NCBI GenBank assembly: GCA_903918755.1
Contig: CAIXFN010000014.1
Span: 124,001 to 188,000 of the forward strand
Reading direction: 5' to 3'
DNA length: 64,000 bases
Source of the DNA: an uncultured Pedosphaera sp.
Lineage (GTDB): Bacteria > Verrucomicrobiota > Verrucomicrobiia > Limisphaerales > Pedosphaeraceae
A program made the translations under genes and the position numbers. This document shows, piece after piece, positions 23,237 through 38,551 of this stretch (positions are counted from its first letter, which is position 1; every line of letters starts with the position of its first letter). The notes below the pieces were generated by a model, which was not told the DNA's origin, made no database searches, and saw only the letters and a program-made list of their open reading frames with translations.

Positions 23237-24997
23237 ATGGCGAACGAGATTGACACCGCGGAGGCCGGGTTCAAGCAGTTGCTCGACAAAATGGTGGCCG
23301 GCCGACAATTGTGCGCGGCCGACGCCGTCGCGCTGACCCGGTTGGCCGCCCGTCCCGGCGCCAAGCCGCCGCTCGCGACCCAGGACGATATCCTGCGGTG
23401 GTTGGGGAACGAGTACGGGGTCACGTTCACGACGCTCGACAACATCGAGCCGGATCGCGAACTGCTTTCGTTGTTTCCCGCCCGGGTGCTGCTGAAGGAA
23501 GAAATCCTGCCCTTGCAGCGGGTGAATGGCACGGCGGAGGTGGCCACCAGCCGCCTCTTCGCCACGCAGGGGCTGGACACCTTGAAGACCTTGACCGGCT
23601 TGAAAATCAAGCCGGTCCTCGCTCCGGCCGAGGCCATCCTGCGGGAGATGAAGAAGCATCTCGGGGTAGGAGCGGACACCATCGACACCCTCGATGAGGA
23701 TGCGCCGCTGCAGGTGGTGGATGAGAATGCGGATGAAAGCGGCAACCTGGAGGATGCGGCGGAAGATGCCTCGATCATCCGGTTCGTGAACCAGGTGCTT
23801 TCGGACGCGATTGAGTTGCGGGCGTCAGATATTCACCTGGAACCGTTCGAAGACGAATTTCGCATCCGTTATCGTATTGACGGCGTGCTGCAGGAAGTGC
23901 CGGTGCCGGCGCAATTGAAGCGTTTCCAGCCGGCGATTGTTTCGCGCGTCAAGATTTTGAGTCATCTTAACATCGCGGAAAAACGCCTGCCGCAGGACGG
24001 GCGCATTAAAATCCGGCTGGCGAGCAATGAAGTCGACATCCGCGTGTCCGTGATTCCGATGCTCCACGGCGAAGCGGTGGTGCTGCGTTTGCTGCGGCAG
24101 AATTCCAAGAGTGCCAACCTGGGCATGAGCCAGTTGGGCATGGATGACCGGGAACTCAAGAGTTTCAAACGGGTCATCCAATTGCCGCACGGGATCATCC
24201 TGGTGACCGGGCCGACGGGCAGCGGCAAGACGACCACGCTTTATATTGCCCTGTCCTCGATCAACGACAGTGAGACCAAGATCATCACGATTGAGGACCC
24301 GATTGAGTATCAGCTCAAGGGGGTCAACCAGATCCAGGTGAATGAGAAGTCCGGGCTGACGTTTGCGCGCGGTTTGCGTTCGATTTTGCGGCATGATCCG
24401 GATGTGGTGCTGATCGGGGAAATCCGCGACGCGGAAACGGCGCAGATTGCAGTGCAAGCCTCGCTGACCGGGCATTTGGTGTTTTCCACGCTGCATACCA
24501 ATGACGCGCCCGGGGCGGTGACGCGGTTGGTGGACATGAAAGTGGAACCTTACCTGGTGGCGTCCTCCCTGGAAGCGGTGCTGGCGCAACGGTTGGTGCG
24601 CGTGCTGTGCCCGATTTGCAAGGCGCCGGACGATACGGACACGACGGCGGCCTTGAAACGCCACTTGGGATTTGCGCGGGATCTGCAGATTTACCGTCCC
24701 GTGGGTTGCCGGGAGTGCCGAAACACCGGCTATCACGGCCGGCATGGAATTTTTGAGTGGATGGATATGAACGCGGAAATCCAGGAACGGATTTTGCGGA
24801 ATTGCTCCAGCGGCGAGATCCGGGAGGCGGCCTTGCGGAACGGCTTGCGGTCCCTGAGTGATGACGGCTGGCGCCTGGTGCGTCGGGGCATCACCACGCC
24901 GGAGGAAGTGATGCGCGCCACCAAGGATCAGTCGCTGGCCGGCGGGATGAAGGAAGAGGCGAAACCGGAAGGCGCGGAAAAAGAAAGTGCCCAATAG
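23237..24997 (+). CDS. gspE: Type II secretion ATPase GspE
   Basis: 586-residue cytoplasmic ATPase that powers pseudopilus assembly. The N-terminal T2SSE domain (about 1-150) is followed by the catalytic core: Walker A GPTGSGKTTT at 325-334, Asp box, Walker B VVLIGEIRDAE at 390-400, and His box TGHLVFSTLHTNDA. A zinc tetracysteine motif CPIC (458-461) and CREC (491-494) is typical of GspE/PilB. Length is normal. It heads the secretion operon; gspF starts 1 bp after its stop. Confidence 0.95.
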   Translation: MANEIDTAEAGFKQLLDKMVAGRQLCAADAVALTRLAARPGAKPPLATQDDILRWLGNEYGVTFTTLDNIEPDRELLSLFPARVLLKEEILPLQRVNGTAEVATSRLFATQGLDTLKTLTGLKIKPVLAPAEAILREMKKHLGVGADTIDTLDEDAPLQVVDENADESGNLEDAAEDASIIRFVNQVLSDAIELRASDIHLEPFEDEFRIRYRIDGVLQEVPVPAQLKRFQPAIVSRVKILSHLNIAEKRLPQDGRIKIRLASNEVDIRVSVIPMLHGEAVVLRLLRQNSKSANLGMSQLGMDDRELKSFKRVIQLPHGIILVTGPTGSGKTTTLYIALSSINDSETKIITIEDPIEYQLKGVNQIQVNEKSGLTFARGLRSILRHDPDVVLIGEIRDAETAQIAVQASLTGHLVFSTLHTNDAPGAVTRLVDMKVEPYLVASSLEAVLAQRLVRVLCPICKAPDDTDTTAALKRHLGFARDLQIYRPVGCRECRNTGYHGRHGIFEWMDMNAEIQERILRNCSSGEIREAALRNGLRSLSDDGWRLVRRGITTPEEVMRATKDQSLAGGMKEEAKPEGAEKESAQ

Positions 24998-24998
24998 C

Positions 24999-26282
24999 AT
25001 GGCCGTATTCCATTACAAAGCGTTACAGGCGGATGGCAAGCTGACCGAAGGCCAGTTGGAAGCCGGTGGCCGGCAGGATGCCTTGCGCCAGATGGATGAA
25101 TTGCGGCTCAAGCCCATCAGCCTGAACGAAAAGGGTGGTGGGAAGGCGGCGAAGCCGACCCGGCCCGCGAAGGTGGAAAAGGCCGCGACGCCCGCTCCGC
25201 CAGCCGGCGGGACCATGGTGGCCAAACCGCTGTTTCAGGCCACGAAGGTGACGCCGAAAATGCTGGAGAATTTCACCCGCTTGCTGTCCAGCCTGCTGGC
25301 GGCGGGGGTGCCGCTGAGCCGGGCCCTGGTGATTTTGATGAAGGAGGCGGCGGCGCCGGTGGCGGCGGCGAAATGGAAAGCAGTGCATGACTCGGTGATT
25401 GACGGCATCTCGCTGGCGGAAGCCATGGGGCGGGATCCGGTCACCTTTCCCCGGGTGTATGTGGCCATGGTGGAGGCGGGCGAAACGGGCGGTTTCCTGG
25501 ACGTGGTGCTGGCCCAGATCGCGGATTTTCAAGCGCGGGAGAAGGAGATGAAGTCGAAGGTGATGGCGGCGATGCTGTATCCCCTCATCCTGTTGTGCCT
25601 CGCGCTGTCGGTGCTCGTGTTCCTGATGGTGTTTTTCATTCCGCGGTTTCAAACGATTTTCGCGGGTATGGGCGCCACCTTGCCCCTGATTACGCGGATC
25701 ATCATCGCGATCAGCGATGCCATCCGAACTTATGGACTCTGGGCGGCCGTGATTTTGGGGGTGGGCGGTTATCTCCTGCGCTCCTGGTTCTCCTCGGAGA
25801 AAGGCCGGCGGGTTTGGGAAGGGCTGATTTTGCGATCCCCGATCGTCGGGCCCCTGGCGGCGCAATTCGCCATGGCCCGGTTTTGCCGCATGCTGGGCAC
25901 CCTGCTGGGTGCCGGCGTGCCACTGGTGCAGGGCCTGAATGTGGCGCGCAAATCCATCGGCAACCAGATTCTCGTGGACGCGGTCTCGAACTCAATTGAA
26001 CGCGTGAAAGAGGGCGGACAATTGGGGAAAAGCTTGGGCGAGTGCCGGGACCTGTTTGCCGGCTCCATTCTGGAAATGATTGCCATCGCCGAGGAGAGCG
26101 GCCGCCTGGATCAGGAATTAGTCCGAATCGCCAATGTCACGGAAAGCGACCTGGATCGCGAACTCAAGACGGCGGTGTCCTTTGCCGAACCCATGATGCT
26201 CTTTTTTATCGCCGCGTTCATCGGCACCATTTTCATCGGCATGGTGCTGCCAATTTTCTCCATGCAAGATCATATTAAATAG
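24999..26282 (+). CDS. gspF: Type II secretion inner-membrane platform protein GspF
   Basis: 427 residues. Starts with the diagnostic MAVFHYKALQADGK, then a Lys/Ala/Pro-rich linker, then two GspF repeats (FTRLLSSLLAAGVPLSRAL and FCRMLGTLLGAGVPLVQGL) with three membrane helices near VMAAMLYPLILLCLALSVLV, YGLWAAVILGVGGYLL and MMLFFIAAFIGTIFIG. It forms the membrane platform under the pseudopilus. ATG 24999 is chosen because the upstream GTG overlaps gspE and adds nothing conserved. Confidence 0.94.
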   Translation: MAVFHYKALQADGKLTEGQLEAGGRQDALRQMDELRLKPISLNEKGGGKAAKPTRPAKVEKAATPAPPAGGTMVAKPLFQATKVTPKMLENFTRLLSSLLAAGVPLSRALVILMKEAAAPVAAAKWKAVHDSVIDGISLAEAMGRDPVTFPRVYVAMVEAGETGGFLDVVLAQIADFQAREKEMKSKVMAAMLYPLILLCLALSVLVFLMVFFIPRFQTIFAGMGATLPLITRIIIAISDAIRTYGLWAAVILGVGGYLLRSWFSSEKGRRVWEGLILRSPIVGPLAAQFAMARFCRMLGTLLGAGVPLVQGLNVARKSIGNQILVDAVSNSIERVKEGGQLGKSLGECRDLFAGSILEMIAIAEESGRLDQELVRIANVTESDLDRELKTAVSFAEPMMLFFIAAFIGTIFIGMVLPIFSMQDHIK

Positions 26283-26302
26283 AAACCTCACTGAATTAGA
26301 TT

Positions 26303-26752
26303 ATGAGAATCAAACAACTAACTAACCGGCCCGATCGCGCGCGCGCCACCTCGGGCTTCACGCTGGTCGAATTGCTGCTGGTCCTGGTCATTTTGGGCAT
26401 TCTGGCTGGCATCGTCGTGCCGAAATTCGGAGGCACCACCGAAAGGGCTAGAATTTCCGCCGCCACTGCCCAATTGAGTACTTTTGCCACCGCGCTCGAC
26501 CTTTTTGAAGTGGACAACGGCTATTACCCCAAAGGCAAGAACGGGTTGAATGACCTGATCGTGAAACCCCGCGATGCCTCCGCCGCCTGGCACCCGTACT
26601 TGGAATCCGTTCCGCTGGATCCCTGGAAGAACCCTTACGTGTATGAATGCCCCGGCAAACATCGTCCCGGCTCCTATGATCTGATGTCCATGGGCGTTGA
26701 TGGCCGCGTTGGGGGTGATGACGACATCACGAATTGGGAGCAGAAGAAGTAA
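26303..26752 (+). CDS. gspG: Major pseudopilin GspG
   Basis: 149 residues. Cleavage site SG-FTLVELLLVLVILGILAG, with a 17-residue basic leader. The body carries the family marks YYPKGKNGLNDL, VPLDPWKNPYVYE and the C-terminal calcium-binding loop (SMGVDGRVGGDDDITNW). It is the main subunit of the T2SS pseudopilus and needs a prepilin peptidase, which is not in this window. Confidence 0.94.
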   Translation: MRIKQLTNRPDRARATSGFTLVELLLVLVILGILAGIVVPKFGGTTERARISAATAQLSTFATALDLFEVDNGYYPKGKNGLNDLIVKPRDASAAWHPYLESVPLDPWKNPYVYECPGKHRPGSYDLMSMGVDGRVGGDDDITNWEQKK

Positions 26753-26758
26753 CGTTTC

Positions 26759-27334
26759 ATGCTCGTCGCCCGCTCCATCCGGCAGCGTCAAGGTGCGGCC
26801 CCCACGGGGGCTTTCACCCTGATCGAGCTCATCCTGGTCATGGCCATCCTGGTGATCGTGATCGGGTTGGTCACGCCCAAGCTCAAGGATTTTTTTGCCG
26901 GGCGGTCGCTGGATTCCGAGGTGCGGCAGTTTCTTTCGCTGACACACTACGCCCGGGAACGCGCCGTATCCGAAGGGGTGCCGATGCTCCTGTGGGTCAA
27001 TACCAAGCTGGGTACCTATGGGCTGCGCCAGGAAACGGGATATACCGACGGCGACCGCAAGCAGGAAGAGTTCAAGATCGACAAGTCGCTGAGCCTGAAC
27101 ATCGCCAAAGGGACGATTGGATCGGTAGCCGGGAACGCCAGCCTGGCTGGCCGCAAGGGGGCCATGCCGGGAATTCATTTCTCGCCGGACGGCCTGGTGC
27201 TGAAGGCCACGAGCGTGCCGGCGATTCAGATCCTGCAAAACGCGAAACAGTTTGTCTGGCTGGTGCCCACAGCGGACCTGCTGGGGTATGAAGTGGAAAG
27301 TCAAAATGCAAATAACGCCAACCTCCGCCGTTAA
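26759..27334 (+). CDS. gspH: Minor pseudopilin GspH
   Basis: 191 residues. Prepilin site TGA-FTLIELILVMAILVIVIGL, then SLDSEVRQFLSLTHYARERAVSEGV, which matches the GspH helix. It lies 6 bp after gspG and overlaps gspI by 29 bp. The remainder is beta-rich and poorly conserved, as usual for GspH. Assignment relies on operon order (G-H-I-J-K) and the ARERAV region. Confidence 0.85.
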   Translation: MLVARSIRQRQGAAPTGAFTLIELILVMAILVIVIGLVTPKLKDFFAGRSLDSEVRQFLSLTHYARERAVSEGVPMLLWVNTKLGTYGLRQETGYTDGDRKQEEFKIDKSLSLNIAKGTIGSVAGNASLAGRKGAMPGIHFSPDGLVLKATSVPAIQILQNAKQFVWLVPTADLLGYEVESQNANNANLRR

Positions 27335-27731
27335 GAACCGGCGCGGCGGCTTTACGCTGATCGAAGTGCTGGCGGCGCTATTGCTGATGGCAATCGTGGT
27401 GCCGGTGGTGGCGCGCGGCTTGAGCATCGCCAGCATGGCAGGCGAGGTTTCGCAGCGCAAATCGCTGGCGGCGCGGGTGGCGGAAAAAGTTTTGAACCAG
27501 GCGATCATCAGTGGCCAGTGGAACCAGTCCGGGCAGACCGGGGTGGAAATGCAAGGCCCGTATAAGTTCCAATGGACCATCAAGAATGAGAGTTGGAAGC
27601 CGCTGGCGATCGTGAATGATGCCCTGACGGAAAATGCGATGCGGGAGGTATCGGTGGAGGTGACCTTCACCGCGCAGGGAAAAAAATGTCTGGTGCACCT
27701 GGCCACCCTGATCAATTCGCAGGCACAATGA
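27306..27731 (+). CDS. gspI: Minor pseudopilin GspI
   Basis: 141 residues. Prepilin site RGG-FTLIEVLAALLLMAIVVPVVARGL, then LAARVAEKVLNQAI, which resembles the GspI segment that joins the pseudopilus tip. ATG 27306 gives a normal 14-residue leader; ATG 27288 in the same frame is possible. It overlaps gspH by 29 bp and gspJ by 4 bp, implying coupled translation. Confidence 0.85.
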   Translation: MQITPTSAVKNRRGGFTLIEVLAALLLMAIVVPVVARGLSIASMAGEVSQRKSLAARVAEKVLNQAIISGQWNQSGQTGVEMQGPYKFQWTIKNESWKPLAIVNDALTENAMREVSVEVTFTAQGKKCLVHLATLINSQAQ

Positions 27732-28423
27732 GGCTCACCCACCATTCCGCCACGGACGCGGCCAGCACCGCGACAGCGTTCACGCTGATCGAGGTACTGC
27801 TGGCCGTGACGATCTCCGCAATCGTGCTGGCGGCGATCAATGTGGTTTTCTTTGGCGCGATCCGCCTACGGGAGGGGTCGGCGGCCGTCACCGAAAAGAC
27901 CTTGCCGATGGATCAATTGGTGAGTGTCATGAAGCGCGATTTGCGCGGGATCGTGCCACCGGACGGGGTGCTTGCTGGCATCATGGCCAGCGATACAACG
28001 GCGGTGGGAATGAACCAACCCGTGCTGTTGGAGATCTACACCGCCACCGGGCAACTGGTGGAGGAAACCCCGTTTGGCGACATCCAGCGGATTGACTACG
28101 CTTTGCAGGATCCCACGAACCGCATGGCGGGGCCCGGGCGGGACCTGGTGCGGAATGTGTCGCGCAACCTGCTGGCGGTGACGCCGGAGACGCCGGTGCC
28201 GCAGCGGTTGATCAGCGGGGTGCAGCAGTTGCAGTTTGCCTATTATGACGGGACGAATTGGGCGAACGTTTGGAGTTCAACCCTCTCGAACATTCCGGTG
28301 GCTATGCGGGTGACCATCACCTTTGCCATCCCGAAGGCGGGCGGGGTGCAGAATCCGCCCATCGAATTTTTAGTGCCGGTGGTCATGGTGTCCCGAACCA
28401 ACACAGTCGAAGCCAGCAACTGA
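27728..28423 (+). CDS. gspJ: Minor pseudopilin GspJ
   Basis: 231 residues. Prepilin site TA-FTLIEVLLAVTISAIVLAAINVV, then TLPMDQLVSVMKRDLRGIVPPDG and the typical ISGVQQLQFAYYDGTNW late region. The start codon overlaps the gspI stop (ATGA). Part of the tip complex with GspI and GspK. Confidence 0.88.
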   Translation: MRLTHHSATDAASTATAFTLIEVLLAVTISAIVLAAINVVFFGAIRLREGSAAVTEKTLPMDQLVSVMKRDLRGIVPPDGVLAGIMASDTTAVGMNQPVLLEIYTATGQLVEETPFGDIQRIDYALQDPTNRMAGPGRDLVRNVSRNLLAVTPETPVPQRLISGVQQLQFAYYDGTNWANVWSSTLSNIPVAMRVTITFAIPKAGGVQNPPIEFLVPVVMVSRTNTVEASN

Positions 28424-28426
28424 CCA

Positions 28427-29824
28427 ATGAAAACCAACCCTCCATCCCGGTTCCATCCGACCGCCGCCCGCGGGCAGCGGGGCTCCGTGCTGGTGTTGGT
28501 GATGTGGATCCTGTTCGGCCTGATCAGCATCACGATTTATTTCGCCCATTCGATGATTTATGAGTTGCGGGCCTCAGACAACCGGGTGGCCGGGATCGAA
28601 GCCGAGCATGCGATTGAGGGTGGCCGGCGGTATGTCAGCCTGATGATTTCCAATATCACCGACCGTGGCTCCATTCCTAGCCCGGCGAACTACCAATGCC
28701 AGGCGGTGCCGGTGGGCAATGGCCGATTCTGGCTCCTGGGCCGGACGAATGTGGATAACGCGCCTCCCGCGGAGCCCACCTGGGGCTTGATGGACGAGGG
28801 GGCGAAGATCAACCTGAACACTGCGAACAGCAACATGCTTTACATGCTGCCGCGGATGACGCCGGAGCTGGTGAATTCAATCCTGGCCTGGCGCAGCACC
28901 AATACGAGCTCCACGACCGGCGGGGCGGAGACCGACACGTATATGCGGTTGAATCCACCCTACACCTGCAAAAACGCCCCCTTCGAAACCATTGGGGAAT
29001 TGCGGCTGATTTACAACATGGACCTGCTGGTCTTGTTCGGGGAAGACCCAAATATGAACGGTATTCTGGACCCCAACGAGAACGATGGGGAAATTCTGCC
29101 GCCTTCGGACAATCAAAATGGGAAGCTGGAACCCGGCATTCTCGAATACGTGACGGTTTATTCCCGCGAGCCGAGCACCACCACCAACGGGACGGCGCGC
29201 ATCCAACTGGGCCCGACCACGGACGTGGAGTCGCTGCGGACGAACATGGAGAGCCTATACGGGGTGACCCAAGCCACCACTTTTCTCGATAAGATTGCAC
29301 CGATCAACCGCAGGCAGGGCAACCGGGTCTATAATCAGCAAATCAACAATCCCTTGCTGTTTTTCCGTGCGACCGGAATGAACGAGGATCAATTCGCGCA
29401 AATTGAGCCCTTGCTTCGCGGTGCTTCCCTCAATGGCTTGGTGAATATCAACACGGCCAGCAGCACGGTGCTGGCCTGCCTGCCCGGAATGGACGCCAAC
29501 ACCGCGGCGCAGGTGGTGGCCTACCGGACCAGCAACCAGGGCACGATTGCGGCGCGCAATTCCATCGGCTGGATCGTCAATGCGATCACCGACAAAACAA
29601 TTTTGCCGCAAATCGCCCCGCGGATCACCGGACGGAGCTACCAGTACACCGCCGACATCGCGGCGGTGGGGCATGACGGCCGGGGATTCCGGCGCACGAG
29701 ATTCATCTTTGACGTCACGCAGGGGGCACCTAACATCATTTACCGCCAGGATCTCACCCATCTCGGATGGGCGCTCGGAAAACAAGTCCGGGACCGCTGG
29801 CAGCTCGGAAAGAAAACATCATGA
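28427..29824 (+). CDS. gspK: Minor pseudopilin GspK
   Basis: 465 residues, the large tip pseudopilin. The N-terminus RGSVLVLVMWILFGLISITIYFAH lacks the FTLIE start, and Glu5 of the mature protein is missing, as in known GspK. ELRASDNRVAGIEAEHAIEGGRRY follows. It carries two helix-hairpin-helix-like stretches, INLNTANSNMLYMLPRMTPE and GLVNINTASSTVLACLPGMD. An acidic DPNMNGILDPNENDGE loop could bind calcium. The stop overlaps the next start (ATGA). Confidence 0.9.
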   Translation: MKTNPPSRFHPTAARGQRGSVLVLVMWILFGLISITIYFAHSMIYELRASDNRVAGIEAEHAIEGGRRYVSLMISNITDRGSIPSPANYQCQAVPVGNGRFWLLGRTNVDNAPPAEPTWGLMDEGAKINLNTANSNMLYMLPRMTPELVNSILAWRSTNTSSTTGGAETDTYMRLNPPYTCKNAPFETIGELRLIYNMDLLVLFGEDPNMNGILDPNENDGEILPPSDNQNGKLEPGILEYVTVYSREPSTTTNGTARIQLGPTTDVESLRTNMESLYGVTQATTFLDKIAPINRRQGNRVYNQQINNPLLFFRATGMNEDQFAQIEPLLRGASLNGLVNINTASSTVLACLPGMDANTAAQVVAYRTSNQGTIAARNSIGWIVNAITDKTILPQIAPRITGRSYQYTADIAAVGHDGRGFRRTRFIFDVTQGAPNIIYRQDLTHLGWALGKQVRDRWQLGKKTS

Positions 29825-31263
29825 TTGATTTCTTCACCAAACGACGGCTCACCTCCGTGCTCGGTTTGGCCATTGACGGCAACCGGCTCGAGGCGGTGGT
29901 ATTGCGCCGCGGCAACAACTCCCTCCAATCCTCCAAGGCGGTCTCCGTGCCGCTCACGCTCTCGCCCCTGACCGGCGATCCGGAGTTGGTGGGCCGGGAA
30001 ATCCGGAACCACCTGGACCAGGCGGGCATCCGGGAGCGGCGGTGCGCCGTCTGCCTGCCGCTGAGCTGGGTGCTTACCCTGCAGACCCAATTGCCGGAAT
30101 TGCCGGAGGCGGATGTGGCCAGCTTCCTCGAGATCGAGGCGGAGCGGGGTTTTCCCTCGGGAGCAGATAGCTTGTTCATCGTCAATTCCCGGGCGCGGAC
30201 GCCGGCGGGAGAACAATATGCGCTCCAAATGGGGGTGCCGCGGAACCATCTGGCACGACTGGAAACGGTGCTCAAAGCGGCGCAACTGAAGCCGGTGCAT
30301 TTCTCGCTGGGCATCGCTGCGTTGCAACCGCCGGGCGCGGCCAACGCCCCCGGAATTCTGACCCTGGCCCTCGCTCTGCACGGCATTGATCTGCAAGTCA
30401 CCGGCGGGGGTGGCATCTTTGCGCTGCGGTCGCTGGATGGCGGCGGGGAAGCGGAAGGGGTGCACCGGGGAGCGGATGCCGATCTGGTGGCCCGAGAGTT
30501 GCGCATTACCCTGGGACAACTCCCCGGCAACGCGGGCGAGGGGCTGCGTAAACTGAAGATTTTCGGCCGGGGCGAACCAGCCCGCAAGTTTGTGGACGAA
30601 ATTTCGCCGCGGGCCCAGGCCATGGGCTTGAAGGTGGAATTGGTGGAGCGCGCGTCGGCGCTGGAGTTTAGTCCGGCGCTACCCGCGGAACTGGTGCTGT
30701 CCACGGCGGTGGTGGTGGCGGTGAACTTGTTGAACGAGGCGCCCGGACCGGAATTCCTGCCGCCGAAGATTCAGCCGTGGAAGCAGATGCTGAACAGCAA
30801 CAAGCTGACTTCGGGCAAGCTCGCCTGGGCTGGCGGGGCGGTCGGGGTGCTCGCGCTGCTCGTGGCGGGGGCGTTTGGCTTCCAACAATGGCAGATCAGC
30901 AGTTACCAAGGCCAGATGGCCGCCATCCAGGCGCAGGTGACCGAACTGAAGACCGATCAGGACCAGATCCGGAAGTTCCGGCCCTGGTTCGACGAAACCT
31001 ACCGGAGCCTGCGCATATTGAAGAAAATCACCGAGGCGTTTCCTGCGACGGGCACCGTGACGGCCAAGACGCTGGAAATCAAAGACCTCTCGAGCATCAC
31101 CTGCACCGGTGTGGCGGTGAATAACCAGGCCTATTTCCGGGTGAGTGACGAGTTGGAAAAAATCCCGGAGGTCAGCGGCGTGATGAGTGATTTTCACGGC
31201 CAGAATCCGTTACAATTTACCTTGAACTTTCAGTGGGAAGGAGCCAAAGCCAGTGGAAATTAA
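29821..31263 (+). CDS. gspL: GspL-like assembly protein (PilM-PilN type fusion)
   Basis: 480 residues. The N-terminal two thirds look like the actin-fold PilM/GspL cytoplasmic domain (SVLGLAIDGNRLEAVVLRRG, CLPLSWVLTLQTQLPELPEADV). A single membrane helix at about 333-353 (LAWAGGAVGVLALLVAGAFGF) and a PilN-like periplasmic part with a coiled coil follow (YQGQMAAIQAQVTELKTDQD). It links GspE to the inner-membrane platform. Its start overlaps gspK by 4 bp. GspL is the better name by gene order; by content it resembles fused PilM and PilN. Confidence 0.82.
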   Translation: MIDFFTKRRLTSVLGLAIDGNRLEAVVLRRGNNSLQSSKAVSVPLTLSPLTGDPELVGREIRNHLDQAGIRERRCAVCLPLSWVLTLQTQLPELPEADVASFLEIEAERGFPSGADSLFIVNSRARTPAGEQYALQMGVPRNHLARLETVLKAAQLKPVHFSLGIAALQPPGAANAPGILTLALALHGIDLQVTGGGGIFALRSLDGGGEAEGVHRGADADLVARELRITLGQLPGNAGEGLRKLKIFGRGEPARKFVDEISPRAQAMGLKVELVERASALEFSPALPAELVLSTAVVVAVNLLNEAPGPEFLPPKIQPWKQMLNSNKLTSGKLAWAGGAVGVLALLVAGAFGFQQWQISSYQGQMAAIQAQVTELKTDQDQIRKFRPWFDETYRSLRILKKITEAFPATGTVTAKTLEIKDLSSITCTGVAVNNQAYFRVSDELEKIPEVSGVMSDFHGQNPLQFTLNFQWEGAKASGN

Positions 31264-31816
31264 AGATCGCCAGAAATTCCTGTTGGTCCTCGCCGCGATT
31301 GGCGTGGGATTGTTTGTGCTGGACAGCGTGGTGATTGAACCCCTGTGGCACAGTTGGACGGAGCGGTCCGCCCGGATCAAGTCCTTGAAGGACTCGCTTA
31401 AGTCGGGCCAGGACCTGATCAAGATCGGTGCGGGCATCCGGGATACGTGGGCGCGCATGTCTACCAACACCCTCAAATCCGACCCCTCGCTGGCCCAGAG
31501 CGACATGTTGAAGGCATTTGACCGCTGGGCCAAGGACAGCGGAATCACCGTGGCGAGCATACATCCGCAGTGGAAATCCACGGGTGAAGATTACGCCCAA
31601 CTGGAAGTGCGGGCGGATGCGAGCGGGAACATCAGTAGTTTGTCAAAGTTTTTGTTTAACGTGGAAAAGGCCCACGCCGTGCACGGGAGCGAAAGCGAAC
31701 ACATCGGCGTGCGCATCGAATCCGTGGAAGTTTCGGCGCGCGACAATGATGGACGGCAACTTTCGCTTGTGCTGCAAATCAGCGGACTGCAACTTGGGGT
31801 TACTCCGGACCAATGA
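31253..31816 (+). CDS. GspM/PilO-like inner-membrane protein
   Basis: 187 residues. A short cytoplasmic start, one membrane helix (FLLVLAAIGVGLFVLDSVVI) and a periplasmic domain that starts as a coiled coil (WTERSARIKSLKDSLKSGQ) and ends in a ferredoxin-like fold (YAQLEVRADASGNISSLSKFL). This is the plan of GspM and PilO. The start is GTG 31253, overlapping gspL by 11 bp; the stop overlaps the next ATG. Confidence 0.8.
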   Translation: MEIKDRQKFLLVLAAIGVGLFVLDSVVIEPLWHSWTERSARIKSLKDSLKSGQDLIKIGAGIRDTWARMSTNTLKSDPSLAQSDMLKAFDRWAKDSGITVASIHPQWKSTGEDYAQLEVRADASGNISSLSKFLFNVEKAHAVHGSESEHIGVRIESVEVSARDNDGRQLSLVLQISGLQLGVTPDQ

Positions 31817-32529
31817 AAAAACATACTACCATCCTCGCCACCTTGCTTTTGGCGACTGCCACCGGCCGTCCTGTCCGCGCGGCGGAAACCGTTGCGGCGG
31901 AAGCCGTGGTGGCGGTCGAAGCCGCACCGGCGGAAACGACCCCCGCCACGACGAATGCCCCACCCGCACGCGGCACGAATACCCCGACGCCTGCCGTCAA
32001 GGAACCGCCCCGGGTTTCCCCCAGCGAGTGGGCGTTTTACAAGATCATCACCGACCGGAACATTTTCAATCCCAACCGGAGTCCCACCAATATCGAAGTG
32101 CCGCCAACCGATAGGCCTCCCACCGTCAGGACGGATTGGTTCACGCTGAAGGGGACGATGAGCTACGAGGAGAAAGCCTACGCCTTTTTCGAGGGAACCG
32201 GCAGCCAGTATAACGGCGGGTTCAAGGCCAATGACGCCATCGGCGGGTACAAGATTGCGGAAATTGCGGGGGACCATATCAACCTGGCGGCTTCGGCGGA
32301 GAAGACCATCGAACTGCGGGTGGGGATGCAAATGCGGCGGGTTGGGACCGGACCTTGGACGCTGGTGGCCAGCCCGGATTTGAGCGCGGCGGCGGAGACG
32401 GGCGACAGCGGTTCCAGTGCCGGTTCCAGCAGCGGCAGCAGTAGCAGCGGCGGCGGCGGGAGCAGCGCGAATGTGGATGAAGTGATGAAGCGAATGATGG
32501 AACGACGGGCCAAAGAAGGCGGGCAGTAA
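31813..32529 (+). CDS. GspC/PilP-like periplasmic connector
   Basis: 238 residues. Signal peptide MKKHTTILATLLLATATG, a Thr/Pro/Ala-rich linker, then an HR-type domain (FYKIITDRNIFNPNR, FTLKGTMSYEEKAYAFFEG, GGYKIAEIAGDHINLAASAEKTIELRVG). Such domains in GspC and PilP contact the secretin N0 domain. Unlike classic GspC there is no retained membrane anchor beyond the signal peptide. A Ser/Gly-rich stretch precedes a basic helical tail, VDEVMKRMMERRAKEGG. It lies directly before the secretin genes. Confidence 0.75.
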   Translation: MKKHTTILATLLLATATGRPVRAAETVAAEAVVAVEAAPAETTPATTNAPPARGTNTPTPAVKEPPRVSPSEWAFYKIITDRNIFNPNRSPTNIEVPPTDRPPTVRTDWFTLKGTMSYEEKAYAFFEGTGSQYNGGFKANDAIGGYKIAEIAGDHINLAASAEKTIELRVGMQMRRVGTGPWTLVASPDLSAAAETGDSGSSAGSSSGSSSSGGGGSSANVDEVMKRMMERRAKEGGQ

Positions 32530-32548
32530 ACAATCAGCTTTAATAAAT

Positions 32549-34273
32549 ATGAAATCGATCAACCGAATACTCTTGATGGCCGGCCTGGCCGGCGGCGTTT
32601 GCGCCGTTGCATCCGCCCGGGCCGCGCAGGATGCCACCACGAACCCACCGGCGACGGTTCCTGCGAATGCGGGGGCGGCGGCACCGCAACCAACCACCGC
32701 GGCGGTGCCGGAACCCGGCACACCGACAGTCCTCGTGACCAACCAACCGCCGGTCATCAGTGACCTGGCCGCCATTCGCGCGATGGGAACCAATGCCGCC
32801 GCGGATTTTGCGGCTGGCAAGGGGCTGCGACTCAACTTCCGGCAGATGCCGCTGCAACTGGTGCTGACCTACATGAGCACCGCGGCGGGGTTCATCATCC
32901 ACACCGATCGCAATGTCAACATTGACGGCAAGGTGGATGTGTGGAGCGATCAACCGATGAGCAAGGCGGAGGCGGTGGCCTTGCTGAAGCAGATGTTGAG
33001 TGAGAACGGGTACGGCGTCCTGGAGAATGGGCGGATGCTGACGATTTTCCCGGCTCTCGATGCCAAAAAGCGGGATGTCAAAGTGCAGGTGGCCAAGGAG
33101 CCGGCGGATATCATCAAGAACTCCGAGATCGTGACCGAGATCATTCCGGTGCGGTCGCTGAACGTGGTGCAACTGGCCAAGGATCTTTCGCCCATGTTGG
33201 ATAATCCGTTGACGGCGCAGGAGTCCGGAAACTCGCTGATCATGACCGACACCCAGATCAATGTGCGCCGGATTGTGGAAATTGTGAAGGCGCTGGATGC
33301 GGTGAGTTCCAGCGTGAATCAGATTCGCGTGTTTCCGCTGGTGTATGCGGACGCCAAGACTTTGGCGACGTTGATCAAGGATTTATTTCCCTCCTCCGAT
33401 GGTGGACGTAGCGGCGGGACCAGTGGCGGCGGCAATACCCGGTTTGGCCGGGGCGGTGGTGGTGGCGGCGGCCGGGGCGGCGGCGGCGGTGGATTCCCGG
33501 GCGCGCCGGGCGGCTTCGGGGGCATGGCGGCACTCTTTGGCGGCGGTGGCGGCGACAGCAATGGGTCGACTCCCACGACGCGCGTGTCGGCGGTGGCGGA
33601 TGACCACAGTAATTCGCTGATCGTCAGCGCGCCGGATGATCTGATGGCGCTGGTGGAAGACGTGGTGAAACAAGTGGATGTGGCCGTTCAGGACGTGACC
33701 CAGGTGAAAGTGTTCAAATTGAAGAACGCGGATGCGGTCGAAATGGCCGATTTGCTCACCAATTTGTTCCCGGATGACACCAATCCCAATGGCGCCAGCA
33801 GCCAGCAGTTTACCTTTGGCGGTTTCGGTGGCGGACGCGGCGGTTTCGGCGGTGGCCGCGGGGCCACGGGCGGACGCGGTGCCACCGGTGCGACCGGCAG
33901 CACTGACCGGATGTCCAAGCTCGGCAAGGTGGTGGCGGTGCCCGACCGGCGCACAGCCTCGGTGGTGGTGAGCGCCTCTAAGATCCTGATGCCGGAAATC
34001 GAAAATATGGTGCAAAACCTGGATGAAAATCCGGCGAAGAAAATGAAGGTATTCGCGTTCAACCTGGAGAACGCGGATCCGCAGGATATCCTGCAGAACC
34101 TGCAGGAAATGTACCCGGCCAGTACGACCGCCGGGGGCCGGAACACGAGCACGACGCAAAGCAATCCGCTGCAAAACCGGGCTAATACCATGCTGCAGCA
34201 GCAGAATTCCACCACCACCACCGGGTTTGGGACCAGTGGCAGCGGCGGGGGCGGCAGCGGCCGGGCGTTTTGA
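32549..34273 (+). CDS. Secretin N-domain protein (GspD, N-terminal half of a split secretin)
   Basis: 574 residues. Signal peptide MKSINRILLMAGLAGGVCAVASA, then an N0-like domain (LRLNFRQMPLQLVLTYMS, about 90-190), then N1 (IIPVRSLNVVQLAKDLSPML), N2 (FPLVYADAKTLATLIKDLFP) and N3 (FKLKNADAVEMADLLTNLFP). N2 and N3 each hold a glycine-rich loop in mid-domain. A further N-domain begins (FAFNLENADPQDILQNLQEMYP) but stops after its first half in a Ser/Gly/Thr-rich tail. No secretin barrel is present. The missing half-domain and the barrel are in the next gene, 48 bp downstream. Confidence 0.9.
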   Translation: MKSINRILLMAGLAGGVCAVASARAAQDATTNPPATVPANAGAAAPQPTTAAVPEPGTPTVLVTNQPPVISDLAAIRAMGTNAAADFAAGKGLRLNFRQMPLQLVLTYMSTAAGFIIHTDRNVNIDGKVDVWSDQPMSKAEAVALLKQMLSENGYGVLENGRMLTIFPALDAKKRDVKVQVAKEPADIIKNSEIVTEIIPVRSLNVVQLAKDLSPMLDNPLTAQESGNSLIMTDTQINVRRIVEIVKALDAVSSSVNQIRVFPLVYADAKTLATLIKDLFPSSDGGRSGGTSGGGNTRFGRGGGGGGGRGGGGGGFPGAPGGFGGMAALFGGGGGDSNGSTPTTRVSAVADDHSNSLIVSAPDDLMALVEDVVKQVDVAVQDVTQVKVFKLKNADAVEMADLLTNLFPDDTNPNGASSQQFTFGGFGGGRGGFGGGRGATGGRGATGATGSTDRMSKLGKVVAVPDRRTASVVVSASKILMPEIENMVQNLDENPAKKMKVFAFNLENADPQDILQNLQEMYPASTTAGGRNTSTTQSNPLQNRANTMLQQQNSTTTTGFGTSGSGGGGSGRAF

Positions 34274-34321
34274 TTGATCCCCGGCGCACGAACAGAATTC
34301 TCATAGAAAGCGATAATCATC

Positions 34322-35569
34322 ATGACTAAGCATTTTGGCAAAAAGATCGGTCTCGGTCTCCTCGTGGGCGCCTGCCTGGCGGCCGTTCCCGCAGTGTTCG
34401 CGCAGCAAGGGCGTGGCGGTGGCGGTGGCGGCGGCGGCGGTGGATTCGGCGGCGGTGGGGGCGGATTTGGCGGCGGCGGCGGAGCCTCGCGGGGTGGTTC
34501 GTCCAGTTCGACCGGTTCCACGCGCGATTACGGGAACAGCACCCAGCTGGGGGATGCCACGTTCTCGATCGACCCGGAAACCCACCAGGTCCTGGTGGCC
34601 ACGGATGAGAGTACGTACCTGAGTATCAGCAATCTGATCTCGCGCCTCGATAAGCCGAAGCCGCAGGTGCTGATCAACGCGGTATTTCTGGAAGTCACCC
34701 ATGATGATGCCCTGGATTTGGGGGTGGATGGGAGTTTTTGGAAATCCATCGGCAACGGCATGAATGTGGGAGCCACCAACCTTTTTAATCTGAGCAGCCT
34801 GGGGTCTCAGGGACAGACAATTGGCTCCAGCACGATGCCGGCGGGCGCCGGGTTGTATGCGATTGCGGGCAAGGATTTTGCCGCGTCTATTCGGGCGATT
34901 TCCTCGGCCGGCAAGACCGAGGTGCTCTCCCGTCCGTCGGTGCTGGTGCGGAACAATCAGCCGGCGACGATCACGGTGGGCCAATCGGTGCCGTTGATCA
35001 CCGGGGTGACATACAGCGGTTTGAACAACACACCGATCAATACCATCAGCTACCAGAGTGTGGGGATCATCCTCCAGGTGACGCCCTTTATTTCGCCCAA
35101 GGGATTGGTCGAAATGATTGTAGCGCCGCAGATCTCCAGTCTGTCGGATAAGAATGTGGGGATCACCGCCGGCATCACCGCCCCGGTGATTGATGTCCGG
35201 TCGGCGAGCACCGTGGTCGTGACCCGGGACGGAGAGACCATCGTGATTGGTGGTTTGATGGAAAACTCCAAAACGACGATCAACAGCAAGATTCCTTTCT
35301 TTGGGGATATTCCCTGGATTGGGGGATTGTTCAGTCACCGGCAGAAAGCCAACACAAAGACCGAGTTGATCATCTTCCTGACGCCGCATGTGGTTAATCA
35401 ACCGGGGGAGATGGCCAAGTATACGGAGATTGAAACCCGCAAGGCGGAGAACGCGCCGAAGGCGTTCACCGAACATGAATTGAACATTTACCTGCCGCCG
35501 AACACGCTGAGCAAGCCGAATACGACCGGCCGAGTCCCGGCGGCGACCACCGTGCCGGACGGGAAATAA
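34322..35569 (+). CDS. Secretin barrel protein (GspD, C-terminal half of a split secretin)
   Basis: 415 residues. It has its own signal peptide (MTKHFGKKIGLGLLVGACLAAVPAVFAQ), a glycine-rich loop (about residues 30-60), then the second half of an N-domain (FSIDPETHQVLVATDESTYL, SISNLISRLDKPKPQVLINA). The secretin domain follows: VFLEVTHDDALDLGVDG, KTEVLSRPSVLVRNNQPATI, TVGQSVPLITGVTYSG, GIILQVTPFISPKGLVEM, then TVVVTRDGETIVIGGLMENS, KIPFFGDIPWIGGLFSHRQ and TELIIFLTPHVV. This is the outer-membrane pore of the T2SS. It must work with the preceding gene product to provide the periplasmic N-domains. Confidence 0.92.
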   Translation: MTKHFGKKIGLGLLVGACLAAVPAVFAQQGRGGGGGGGGGGFGGGGGGFGGGGGASRGGSSSSTGSTRDYGNSTQLGDATFSIDPETHQVLVATDESTYLSISNLISRLDKPKPQVLINAVFLEVTHDDALDLGVDGSFWKSIGNGMNVGATNLFNLSSLGSQGQTIGSSTMPAGAGLYAIAGKDFAASIRAISSAGKTEVLSRPSVLVRNNQPATITVGQSVPLITGVTYSGLNNTPINTISYQSVGIILQVTPFISPKGLVEMIVAPQISSLSDKNVGITAGITAPVIDVRSASTVVVTRDGETIVIGGLMENSKTTINSKIPFFGDIPWIGGLFSHRQKANTKTELIIFLTPHVVNQPGEMAKYTEIETRKAENAPKAFTEHELNIYLPPNTLSKPNTTGRVPAATTVPDGK

Positions 35570-35609: not shown

Positions 35610-35654
35610 GATGGCTGGGGGTTGCGGAGCAGCCGCGTCAAACTGACAAAAATA

Positions 35655-37160
35655 ATGATTACCCGCAGCAGTTCCCTGGTTTATGGCACCTTGGCCGCGA
35701 TCTGGGTGCTGTTGGTTGCCTGGCAGACGGCGGAGCACGCGCGGGTCAAGGAATCCGCGCGCGACGGCTTGCGGCACCGGGCGAAGGATCTGTCCAACGC
35801 CATGGGCGTGGTGATGAAGTCAGTGCGGTTTCGGGGGGGGGAGTTCATTTTACGGGAGCGGTTGCAACCGGCATTGAGTGATTTGATCGGGCAGGGAGAC
35901 ATGCAATCCGAGTTGCAGTCGGTTGCCTTGCTGAACGCTGCCGGGGAAGTGAAAGCTTCGGCCGGGTTACCCATCGAACCGCCACTGGAGGGGTATCTGA
36001 AAAACGGGGAGAAGTGGGGGCCCACCTCGGTTATTTTTGAAAATCTGGTGGACATGGGCACCAACAACATTGTGGTGTCGCGCAATGATTTTCCCCCGGG
36101 GCGACCCGGGACCAACGCGCCCCCCTTGGTGGAACCAAGCCCGGCGACCCCGCCGTTGGATTCCGCCATTGCCGCGACCAATGCTGGCCCATTGACGAAC
36201 CTTCCCGGGAGCACCGGCGCCGGGTCCAACAGCGGGCGGGGATCGGGACCGCGGCGGCGGGGTGGTCCGTCCGAAATGGAACTACGGGAAATGCGGGAGC
36301 GGAATCGCCTGCATGATTTTGTCATCGTCATGTCCACGCAGGAAGTGCGGGAGATTTCCAACCGGGATCTGTGGCTGCGATTTGTGATCGGGCTGCTTGG
36401 TACCGTTTCGGTGGCCGGTTATGGACTGGCCTGGCGGAGCTTCGGAAACACCTCGGAACTGCAGATCCGGCTGGCGCGGGCCAGCGAGTTGAATTCCCAC
36501 CTGAAAGAACTGAATCTGGCGGCGGCGGGGCTGGCGCATGAGACCCGCAATCCTTTGAACATCATTCGCGGCCTGGCGCAAATGATTTCCAAGCAGCAGG
36601 ATGCCTCGCCGGAAATCCGGGGCAAATCCCGCGATATCATTGATGAAGCCGATCGGGTGGCCGCCCAACTCAATGAGTTCATCAACTATTCGCGTCCCCG
36701 GGAATTGCGACGGGTGCCGACGAATCTGGCGTCAGTGATTGGCGAGGTCGTGCGGGCTCTGAATTACGACGTGGAAGAGAAGCAAGTCCGACTGGAAATC
36801 CAGACCGAGCGCCTGGTGATCGAGGCCGACGAGCAGTTACTGCGACAGGCGCTGTTTAATCTGGTGCTTAATTCCATTCAGGCAGTGCCGGCCGGCGGGG
36901 CGATCCAAATCCGCACCGGGAAACGCAACGGCAGCGGGGCCTTCATCGAGATTGCCGATAATGGACCGGGCGTGCCGCCCGAAAACCGGACGGAAATCTT
37001 CAAGCCCTATTTTACCACCAACCAGACAGGTACTGGATTAGGACTGGCCGTGGTCCAGCAGATCGTGTCGGCGCATGGTTGGGAGATCCAGTGCCTGGCC
37101 AACGAGCCCGCGGGTGCGCGCTTCCTTCTCAGCGGGCTTAAGCTTATGCTGAAAGGGTGA
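35655..37160 (+). CDS. Membrane sensor histidine kinase (NtrB-like output)
   Basis: 501 residues. Two membrane helices (about 5-24 and 238-260) bracket a periplasmic sensor region that ends in a Pro/Thr/Gly-rich stretch. The HisKA block LAAAGLAHETRNPLNIIRGL holds the phospho-acceptor His295. ATPase boxes: NLVLNSIQAVP (N), DNGPGVP (G1) and GTGLGLAVVQQI (G2). The last codon overlaps the start of the NtrC-type regulator (TGATG), so the two form a cognate pair. ATG 35655 is chosen; an upstream alternative adds 11 unlike residues. Confidence 0.92.
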   Translation: MITRSSSLVYGTLAAIWVLLVAWQTAEHARVKESARDGLRHRAKDLSNAMGVVMKSVRFRGGEFILRERLQPALSDLIGQGDMQSELQSVALLNAAGEVKASAGLPIEPPLEGYLKNGEKWGPTSVIFENLVDMGTNNIVVSRNDFPPGRPGTNAPPLVEPSPATPPLDSAIAATNAGPLTNLPGSTGAGSNSGRGSGPRRRGGPSEMELREMRERNRLHDFVIVMSTQEVREISNRDLWLRFVIGLLGTVSVAGYGLAWRSFGNTSELQIRLARASELNSHLKELNLAAAGLAHETRNPLNIIRGLAQMISKQQDASPEIRGKSRDIIDEADRVAAQLNEFINYSRPRELRRVPTNLASVIGEVVRALNYDVEEKQVRLEIQTERLVIEADEQLLRQALFNLVLNSIQAVPAGGAIQIRTGKRNGSGAFIEIADNGPGVPPENRTEIFKPYFTTNQTGTGLGLAVVQQIVSAHGWEIQCLANEPAGARFLLSGLKLMLKG

Positions 37161-38551
37161 TGACGTTATCGCCTGAAGTTCCCGCGCCCGGGGTGTCGCC
37201 CCGGATTCTCATAGTCGATGATGACGCCTCCCAGCGGAGCCTGCTGGTTTCCTTTCTGGCGGGGCAGGGATTTGAAACGGTGCCGGTGGAGTCGGGCGAG
37301 CGGGCGCTGGCGGTATTGGCGGGGGGCGGCGTGGCGATGATGATTTCCGATGTGCGGATGGCGGGTCTCACGGGTCTGGAACTGCTGCGGTTGGCGCGCA
37401 AGGAGCACGCTCATTTGCCCATTTTGATGGTGACCGCTTACACGGACATCCGGGACGCCGTGGAGGCCATCCGGGACGGGGCGGTGGACTATCTGGCCAA
37501 GCCGATTGATCTGGATGAGTTGTTGGATGCCGTGCGCCAGGCCACCGGGTTAACCCGGGACGTGCCGCTCCGGTTCGATGACAACCGGCAATTACCGGCC
37601 GGGGTGGTGGCGGAAAGTCCGCTGATGCGGGCGGTGTTTCGCGAAGCCTCCCTGTTCGCTCCCTCCGAGAGTCGGGCGCTGATCACGGGGGAGAGCGGCG
37701 TGGGCAAGGAGGTGCTGGCTGAGGTCATCCATTCCTGGAGTGCCCGGGCGGACGGACCGCTGGTGAAGTTCAACTGCGCCGCCATTCCCGAAACCCTGTT
37801 GGAGAGTGAATTATTCGGGCATGAGAAAGGCGCTTTCACGGGGGCGGTGGCCCAGCGCATCGGCCGGTTCGAGGCCGCCAACGGGGGGACGATTTTTTTG
37901 GATGAAATTGGCGAACTGACCCCCCAGCTCCAAGCCAAGCTGCTGCGGGTGACCCAGGACGGCCGCTTTCAGCGGATCGGTTCCAACACCGAGATCCGGG
38001 TGAATGCCCGATTGTTGGCGGCCACCAACCGTAATCTGGAAGAGGAAGTCAGGAACGGGCGGTTCCGGGAGGATCTGTTTTACCGGCTGAATGTCTTCGA
38101 GGTTCATGTTCCGCCGTTGCGCGAGCGGCGCGAGGACATTTTGCCGTTGGCCGAGAAGTTCATTGAGGAATTCAGCCGGGGGGCAGCACGGCTTTCCGCC
38201 TCGGTGGCGGATTGCCTGGAGCATTACGCGTGGCCGGGGAATGTGCGGGAGTTGCGGAATGCCATGGAACGCGCCGCCTTGCTTTCCCGCGGGGAACTGA
38301 TCCTGTTGGAGCATCTGCCGACGCGCTTGCGCCCTCCGCCGCGCACTACCCTGTCCCGGGAGTCGCCGGAGGAAAAACCGTTGGGGGAGATTGAAAATAC
38401 CGCGATCATGGAGGCGTTGCGCAAACACCATTTCAACCGCACCGAAACCGCCAAAGCTCTGGGAATCAGCCGCCGGACCCTGATTTACAAGCTGCAACGG
38501 CTGCGCGAAGCAGGTTTTGCGATCGGGCCGCTTGATTCGACCGGGGGCTGA
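37160..38551 (+). CDS. Sigma54-dependent response regulator (NtrC family)
   Basis: 463 residues. Receiver domain 1-140 with ILIVDDDASQ, phospho-acceptor Asp64 in MISDVRMAG, and the conserved Lys in AKPIDLDEL. AAA+ domain: Walker A GESGVGKE (177-184), GAFTGA loop (224-229), which contacts sigma54, Walker B GTIFLDEIGEL, and the arginine-finger region FREDLFYRLNVFEV. The Fis-type HTH is NRTETAKALGISRRTLIYKL. It would switch on sigma54 promoters when phosphorylated by the coupled kinase. Targets are not defined; the secretion operon and the pseudopilin locus are neighbours. Confidence 0.95.
   Translation: MTLSPEVPAPGVSPRILIVDDDASQRSLLVSFLAGQGFETVPVESGERALAVLAGGGVAMMISDVRMAGLTGLELLRLARKEHAHLPILMVTAYTDIRDAVEAIRDGAVDYLAKPIDLDELLDAVRQATGLTRDVPLRFDDNRQLPAGVVAESPLMRAVFREASLFAPSESRALITGESGVGKEVLAEVIHSWSARADGPLVKFNCAAIPETLLESELFGHEKGAFTGAVAQRIGRFEAANGGTIFLDEIGELTPQLQAKLLRVTQDGRFQRIGSNTEIRVNARLLAATNRNLEEEVRNGRFREDLFYRLNVFEVHVPPLRERREDILPLAEKFIEEFSRGAARLSASVADCLEHYAWPGNVRELRNAMERAALLSRGELILLEHLPTRLRPPPRTTLSRESPEEKPLGEIENTAIMEALRKHHFNRTETAKALGISRRTLIYKLQRLREAGFAIGPLDSTGG

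What the first reader, a model, noticed from the sequence alone, without database searches (positions are those of the whole stretch)
32549..35569. T2SS secretin split into two exported proteins inside an N-domain
Seen: the first protein ends with the first half of an N-domain (FAFNLENADPQDILQNLQEMYP) and a Ser/Gly-rich tail. The second starts with a signal peptide, a glycine-rich loop, then the second half of an N-domain (FSIDPETHQVLVATDESTYL) and the complete secretin domain. In the same protein, N2 and N3 have exactly this half/Gly-loop/half layout, so the gene break falls in the loop of one domain. Known secretins carry N-domains and barrel on one chain. Inference: the two chains meet in the periplasm and complete one fold. 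This could allow separate control of pore and periplasmic vestibule.
Basis: partly seen in the sequence, partly recalled or inferred. Interest (0 to 1): 0.75.

Follow-up and report, generated by a model that had tools for sequence, protein, structure and literature searches.

The report
Two-chain secretin of type II secretion
In a large group of Verrucomicrobia-related bacteria, the outer-membrane pore of the type II protein-export machine is encoded as two separately exported proteins that each carry half of one small domain and appear to join there, whereas in textbook type II systems a single protein does it all.

Summary
Inside a complete T2SS operon (gspE to gspM, gspC), gspD is replaced by two genes, each with its own predicted signal peptide. 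D1 (32549-34273) carries N0, N1, N2, an extra N-domain and the first half of the last N-domain. D2 (34322-35569) carries the second half and the whole secretin barrel.

It is not a sequencing or assembly error. The split occurs in all 156 genomes checked, including two single-contig genomes. The reading phase between the genes is random, and no fused member of the clade was found. The split D2s form one clade (SH-aLRT 98).

The halves match adjacent parts of Pfam Secretin_N (2-25 and 26-69) and pass its cut-off only when joined. Across 150 pairs, D1's half covaries with D2's half about as strongly as the halves of an intact domain; shuffled pairings do not. In a predicted model of the linked chains the halves align onto the N3 domain of GspD, PilQ and phage pIV.

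Best explanation: a heteromeric secretin whose N3 ring is built from two chains. Rhizobial T3SS secretins (rhcC1/rhcC2) are a precedent, so "all known secretins are one chain" is wrong, but no T2SS case was found. Separate control of pore and vestibule is untested.

The parts
23237..32529 (+). T2SS operon upstream of the split secretin: gspE, F, G, H, I, J, K, L, M, C
   Evidence: gene order kept in relatives, gspC before D1 in 59 of 59 loci
32549..34273 (+). D1 gene: signal peptide, N0, N1, N2, one extra N-domain, first half of N3, low-complexity tail (574 aa)
   Evidence: PF21305 and PF03958; GspD model positions 1-283
32831..33031 (+). N0 domain (D1 residues 95-161)
   Evidence: PF21305, E 7.7e-08; aligned to the solved GspD N0 domain 4jtm, Z 12.2, rmsd 2.3
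33125..33298 (+). N1 domain (D1 residues about 193-250), without a Gly-rich loop
33317..33685 (+). N2 domain with Gly-rich loop (D1 residues about 257-379)
   Evidence: PF03958 260-380; model strands and helices on both sides of a low-confidence loop 285-340
33698..34024 (+). extra N-domain with Gly-rich loop (D1 residues about 384-492)
   Evidence: present in 40 of 58 D1s checked
34043..34117 (+). first half of N3: strand and helix (D1 residues 499-523)
   Evidence: PF03958 positions 2-25; conserved in relatives; model pLDDT 87-91
34118..34270 (+). Ser/Asn/Gly-rich D1 tail with an L-x-x-R motif (34169-34180)
   Evidence: R in all 60 tails, L in 93%; role unknown
34274..34321 (+). gap between D1 and D2, with one further in-frame stop (TAG)
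   Evidence: no promoter or terminator pattern on this strand
34322..35569 (+). D2 gene: signal peptide, Gly-rich leader, second half of N3, secretin barrel (415 aa)
   Evidence: GspD model positions 274-598
34322..34402 (+). predicted Sec signal peptide of D2 (about 27 residues, A-x-A then Q)
   Evidence: by eye from the sequence; A27 92% and Q28 98% conserved; no signal-peptide predictor was available
34403..34528 (+). Gly-rich leader of D2 (residues 28-69)
   Evidence: sequence; low-confidence stretch in the model
34553..34657 (+). second half of N3: two strands and a helix (D2 residues 78-112)
   Evidence: PF03958 positions 26-69; covaries with D1 499-523
34895..35395 (+). secretin domain (D2 residues 192-358)
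   Evidence: PF00263, E 1.1e-47

Best explanation
gspD underwent one ancient fission within the disordered loop of its last N-domain (N3), and the downstream part acquired its own signal peptide. Today D1 (vestibule: N0 to the first half of N3) and D2 (second half of N3 plus barrel) are exported separately and fold together in the periplasm. Strand 1 and helix 1 of N3 come from D1; strands 2-3 and helix 2 come from D2. One D1/D2 pair thus replaces each GspD subunit of the ring, and the N3 ring, which in other secretins passes movements of the vestibule to the gate, becomes a two-chain interface. The D1 tail and the D2 leader are the two ends of the former loop and are expected to hang in the channel lumen. 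Shown here: the split, its conservation, a single clade, complementary halves, inter-chain covariation and a consistent model. Inferred: export by Sec, 1:1 assembly, position of the tails, any function of the tails.
For: All 156 genomes checked are split and none fused. Halves cover PF03958 2-25 and 26-69 and pass the cut-off only when joined (31.6, 37.8, 30.5 bits against 28.2). D1-half to D2-half is the most enriched block pair in mean-field DCA on 150 pairs, above every other block paired with the D2 half in 89 of 89 subsamples and lost on shuffling the pairing. AF2 of the linked chain folds both halves at pLDDT 87-91 and the region aligns to N3 plus barrel of pIV, GspD and PilQ. One clade, SH-aLRT 98. 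Unsplit GspDs have a loop at the same site.
Against: No experiment. The structure was predicted as one artificially linked chain, so it cannot itself show contact between molecules. The AF2 comparison of D2 alone (pLDDT 81-83) used a smaller alignment. Covariation rests on about 100 effective sequences. Signal peptides were judged by eye. Stoichiometry is unknown.
Confidence: 0.85

Rival explanations
1. Frameshift, nonsense mutation, assembly error or a decaying gspD pseudogene.
For: D1 and D2 are in the same frame in this window, separated by only two stops.
Against: The same split is in all 156 genomes checked, including single-contig genomes L097 and L136; gap phase elsewhere is random, 17/18/24; both halves and the second signal peptide are conserved.
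Confidence: 0.01
2. One protein is made after all, by stop-codon read-through or frameshifting, and the two-gene look is only apparent.
For: The two genes share a frame in 17 of 59 loci.
Against: That is about one third, as expected by chance (17/18/24). A through-read would bury the conserved D2 signal peptide in the middle of the chain.
Confidence: 0.02
3. D2 forms the pore alone, with a rudimentary half-domain, and D1 is an independent periplasmic ring or adaptor that does not share a domain with it.
For: D2 has a complete secretin domain and its half-domain is predicted fairly well alone (pLDDT 81-83). In rhizobial T3SS the two parts have distinct origins (PMC3459982).
Against: Both half-domains are conserved up to the complementary boundary and covary with each other rather than with other N-domain halves. 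D1 always ends in the half-domain plus tail.
Confidence: 0.09
4. The operon uses a complete secretin encoded elsewhere in the genome, and D1/D2 are accessory.
For: Seven other secretin-domain matches lie in this genome, including a giant single-chain one.
Against: The giant one follows its own gspK/L/M-like genes; L174, L175 and L176 have other pilus or secretion genes beside them; D1/D2 keep their place after gspC in 59 of 59 loci.
Confidence: 0.03

Closest known systems
T2SS secretin GspD (PulD, ExeD, EpsD, XcpQ; NCBIfam TIGR02517)
   Same: Place in a T2SS operon, N0 plus Secretin_N domains plus barrel in the same order; together D1 and D2 cover the whole GspD model; best solved-structure matches are T2SS secretins
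   Different: Two chains instead of one, broken inside N3; each half falls below the curated GspD cut-off (174.3 and 250.6 against 351.35 bits); often an extra N-domain
Split secretin of rhizobial-type T3SS, RhcC1 (NolW) and RhcC2
   Same: A secretin encoded by an N-terminal and a barrel gene (PMC3459982, PMC3574062, PMC3973906)
   Different: T3SS, genes at separate places; the barrel part was acquired from a Tad locus by partial gene replacement and carries a BON domain (PMC3459982), so the parts are not described as halves of one domain; here the genes are adjacent and the break is inside N3
Filamentous phage secretin pIV
   Same: N3 fold (three-stranded sheet, two helices) with a disordered loop pointing into the pore; N3 mutations cause partial gate opening (PMC8563730); aligns to the linked model over N3 plus barrel
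   Different: One chain, no N1 or N2, not part of a T2SS

Membership tests
T2SS secretin GspD | Secretin (PF00263) barrel domain | tested here: met
   D2 192-358, E 1.1e-47
T2SS secretin GspD | N0 followed by Secretin_N domains | tested here: met
   In D1, last domain completed by D2
T2SS secretin GspD | Encoded within a T2SS operon | tested here: met
   gspE to gspM and gspC upstream; order kept in 59 loci
T2SS secretin GspD | Single polypeptide passing the curated TIGR02517 cut-off (351.35 bits) | tested here: not met
   D1 174.3 bits (positions 1-283), D2 250.6 bits (274-598). So it is a two-chain equivalent of GspD, not a GspD by that model's cut-off
T2SS secretin GspD | Forms an outer-membrane multimer that lets folded exoproteins pass | not testable with these tools
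   Needs experiment
Rhizobial split secretin RhcC1/RhcC2 | N-terminal part and barrel part on two genes | tested here: met
Rhizobial split secretin RhcC1/RhcC2 | Located in a T3SS cluster | tested here: not met
   T2SS operon
Rhizobial split secretin RhcC1/RhcC2 | Barrel part of Tad origin | tested here: inconclusive
   D2 scores best with the GspD model (250.6 bits), above other secretin models; no Tad secretins were placed in the tree

The most novel reading that the evidence does not exclude
The two-chain design is functional rather than a frozen accident: pore and vestibule assemble or come apart separately, the two-chain N3 ring is a regulated gate, and the low-complexity tails (with the L/F-x-x-R motif) fill the lumen as a docking or barrier element.
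Probability: 0.2. Interest if true: 0.85.

Novelty: new variant of a known kind. Interest (0 to 1): 0.64.

Why it matters
T2SS secretins are treated as single-chain rings. A clade-wide two-chain form, cut inside the domain thought to pass movements from the vestibule to the gate, is a natural experiment on N3 function and on secretin assembly. It also affects annotation: each half falls below the GspD model cut-off, so T2SS searches that require one GspD may miss or misname these systems.

Tried and rejected
Long open frames suggested fused members; every one fetched was split. G609 (frame 949) also proved split; G607 is a normal fused GspD outside the clade. A profile built from N1 alone was too narrow to count the other N-domains. 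A sister relation of split and giant secretins was strong in FastTree but not recovered by IQ-TREE, so it is not claimed. Read-through was rejected from the gap phase. Covariation of the D1 tail with D2 was weaker than half to half and is not claimed. The single scan of named genomes used one sequence and found only 4 loci. No paper describing a split T2SS secretin was found, but most subscription papers are not in the library.

Full report
What is there. The window lies in a 7.19 Mb, 118-contig genome. A hit titled uncultured Pedosphaera sp. MAG lies on a contig of the same length (21003) as the same-genus hit G001:C121. Positions 23237-35569 hold a T2SS operon: gspE, F, G, H, I, J, K, L, M, C, then D1 and D2, followed by a histidine kinase and a response regulator. 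D1 (574 aa) has a predicted signal peptide, the GspD N0 domain and PF03958 domains. D2 (415 aa) has a predicted signal peptide, a Gly-rich leader, a partial PF03958 and a complete secretin domain. Against the GspD model, D1 covers positions 1-283 and D2 274-598. D1's tail matches PF03958 positions 2-25 and D2 matches 26-69. The window D1 has one N-domain more than canonical GspD; of 58 D1s, 18 have the canonical number, 37 one extra and 3 two extra.

Not an artefact. D2 relatives with open frames mostly of 370-500 codons occur across the order, in other orders of the class and in a few genomes outside the class. I fetched 59 loci: all have D1 directly before D2, usually less than 60 nt apart, with one gap of 805 nt. 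A further 94 loci were all split, as were two more; with the window this makes 156 genomes and no fused case. Two of these genomes are single contigs (L097, L136). The gap phase is 17/18/24, so no read-through is conserved. Canonical single-chain GspDs are common elsewhere in the phylum, and two genomes (G461, G500) carry both kinds. A 113-row tree puts all 62 split D2s in one clade (SH-aLRT 98; FastTree agrees), consistent with one fission. Unsplit GspDs have a long loop at the equivalent site in N3.

Do the halves make one domain? Four lines of evidence. First, profile: the joined halves of three species score 31.6, 37.8 and 30.5 bits, above the PF03958 cut-off of 28.2, while the window halves alone score 12.9 and 19.0. 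Second, conservation: key positions of both half-domains are strongly conserved over 60 pairs, which a decaying remnant would not be. Third, covariation: mean-field DCA on 150 pairs (effective number about 100) put more of the strongest couplings between D1's half and D2's half than between any other pair of blocks, with enrichment like that inside the intact N1 domain. In a second run with fewer blocks, this exceeded every other block paired with D2's half in 89 of 89 subsamples, and shuffling the pairing removed it. Because all these sequences postdate the split, I read the signal as constraint between separate chains. Fourth, structure: AF2 of the read-through chain (D1 and D2 happen to share a frame here) folds strand 500-505 and helix 511-521 of D1 and the D2 half at pLDDT 87-91; D2 alone, with a smaller alignment, gives 81-83 there. 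The best solved-structure matches are T2SS secretins; model residues 499-950 align to 230 of 231 residues of phage pIV (rmsd 4.6, Z 13.3) and 500-970 to GspD 5w68 (rmsd 6.3, Z 14.7). The linked chain cannot by itself show contact between molecules; covariation is the independent test.

How it probably works. In pIV, N3 is a three-stranded sheet with two helices and a disordered loop pointing into the pore, and N3 mutations cause partial gate opening (PMC8563730). I infer that the break here falls in the corresponding loop, that each GspD subunit is replaced by a D1/D2 pair, that the N3 ring holds vestibule and pore together, and that the D1 tail (about 50 residues) and the D2 leader hang in the lumen. 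The D1 tail carries an L/F-x-x-R motif: R is present in all 60 tails of the first set, but the motif is missing in some of the larger set. Its role is unknown.

What is known. Split secretin genes are described for rhizobial-type T3SS (PMC3459982, PMC3574062, PMC3973906); there the barrel part was acquired from a Tad system. No T2SS or Verrucomicrobiota case was found in the open-access library. I therefore rate this a new variant of a known kind. Separate regulation is not supported: the genes are adjacent and no promoter or terminator pattern lies between them on their strand.

Noticed in passing
L193:2798-14671 (-) (own genome, contig C49); also L194, L195, L196, L197: A giant single-chain secretin of 3089-4274 aa with a long tandem array of N-domains: 42 PF03958 stretches in this genome at a loose cut-off, 30 and 31 at a strict one in two relatives, and one secretin domain. 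In 5 of 5 genomes it follows gspK-, gspL- and gspM-like genes, so it looks like the secretin of a second T2SS-like operon. An array this long would not be expected to fit a normal periplasm as a simple stack (own knowledge).
   Followed up: partly
L094 and L095 against L179-L182 (genomes G500 and G461): Two genomes outside the class carry both a split gspD and fused GspDs, each with other secretion genes nearby; transfer or old paralogy was not resolved.
   Followed up: partly
window 34169-34180 and relatives: A short L/F-x-x-R motif in the otherwise low-complexity D1 tail, with R in all 60 tails of the first set but the motif missing in some of the larger set.
   Followed up: partly
window 35622-38551: A sensor kinase and a sigma-54-type response regulator follow D2; similar genes follow it in many relatives (kinase in 44, regulator in 30 of 59 loci, some cut by the fetched stretch). 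Possible regulators of this T2SS.
   Followed up: no
L176:6935-10216 (+) (own genome, contig C78): A further single-chain secretin of 1093 aa with GspG- and GspK-like neighbours: a third T2SS-like cluster in the same genome.
   Followed up: no
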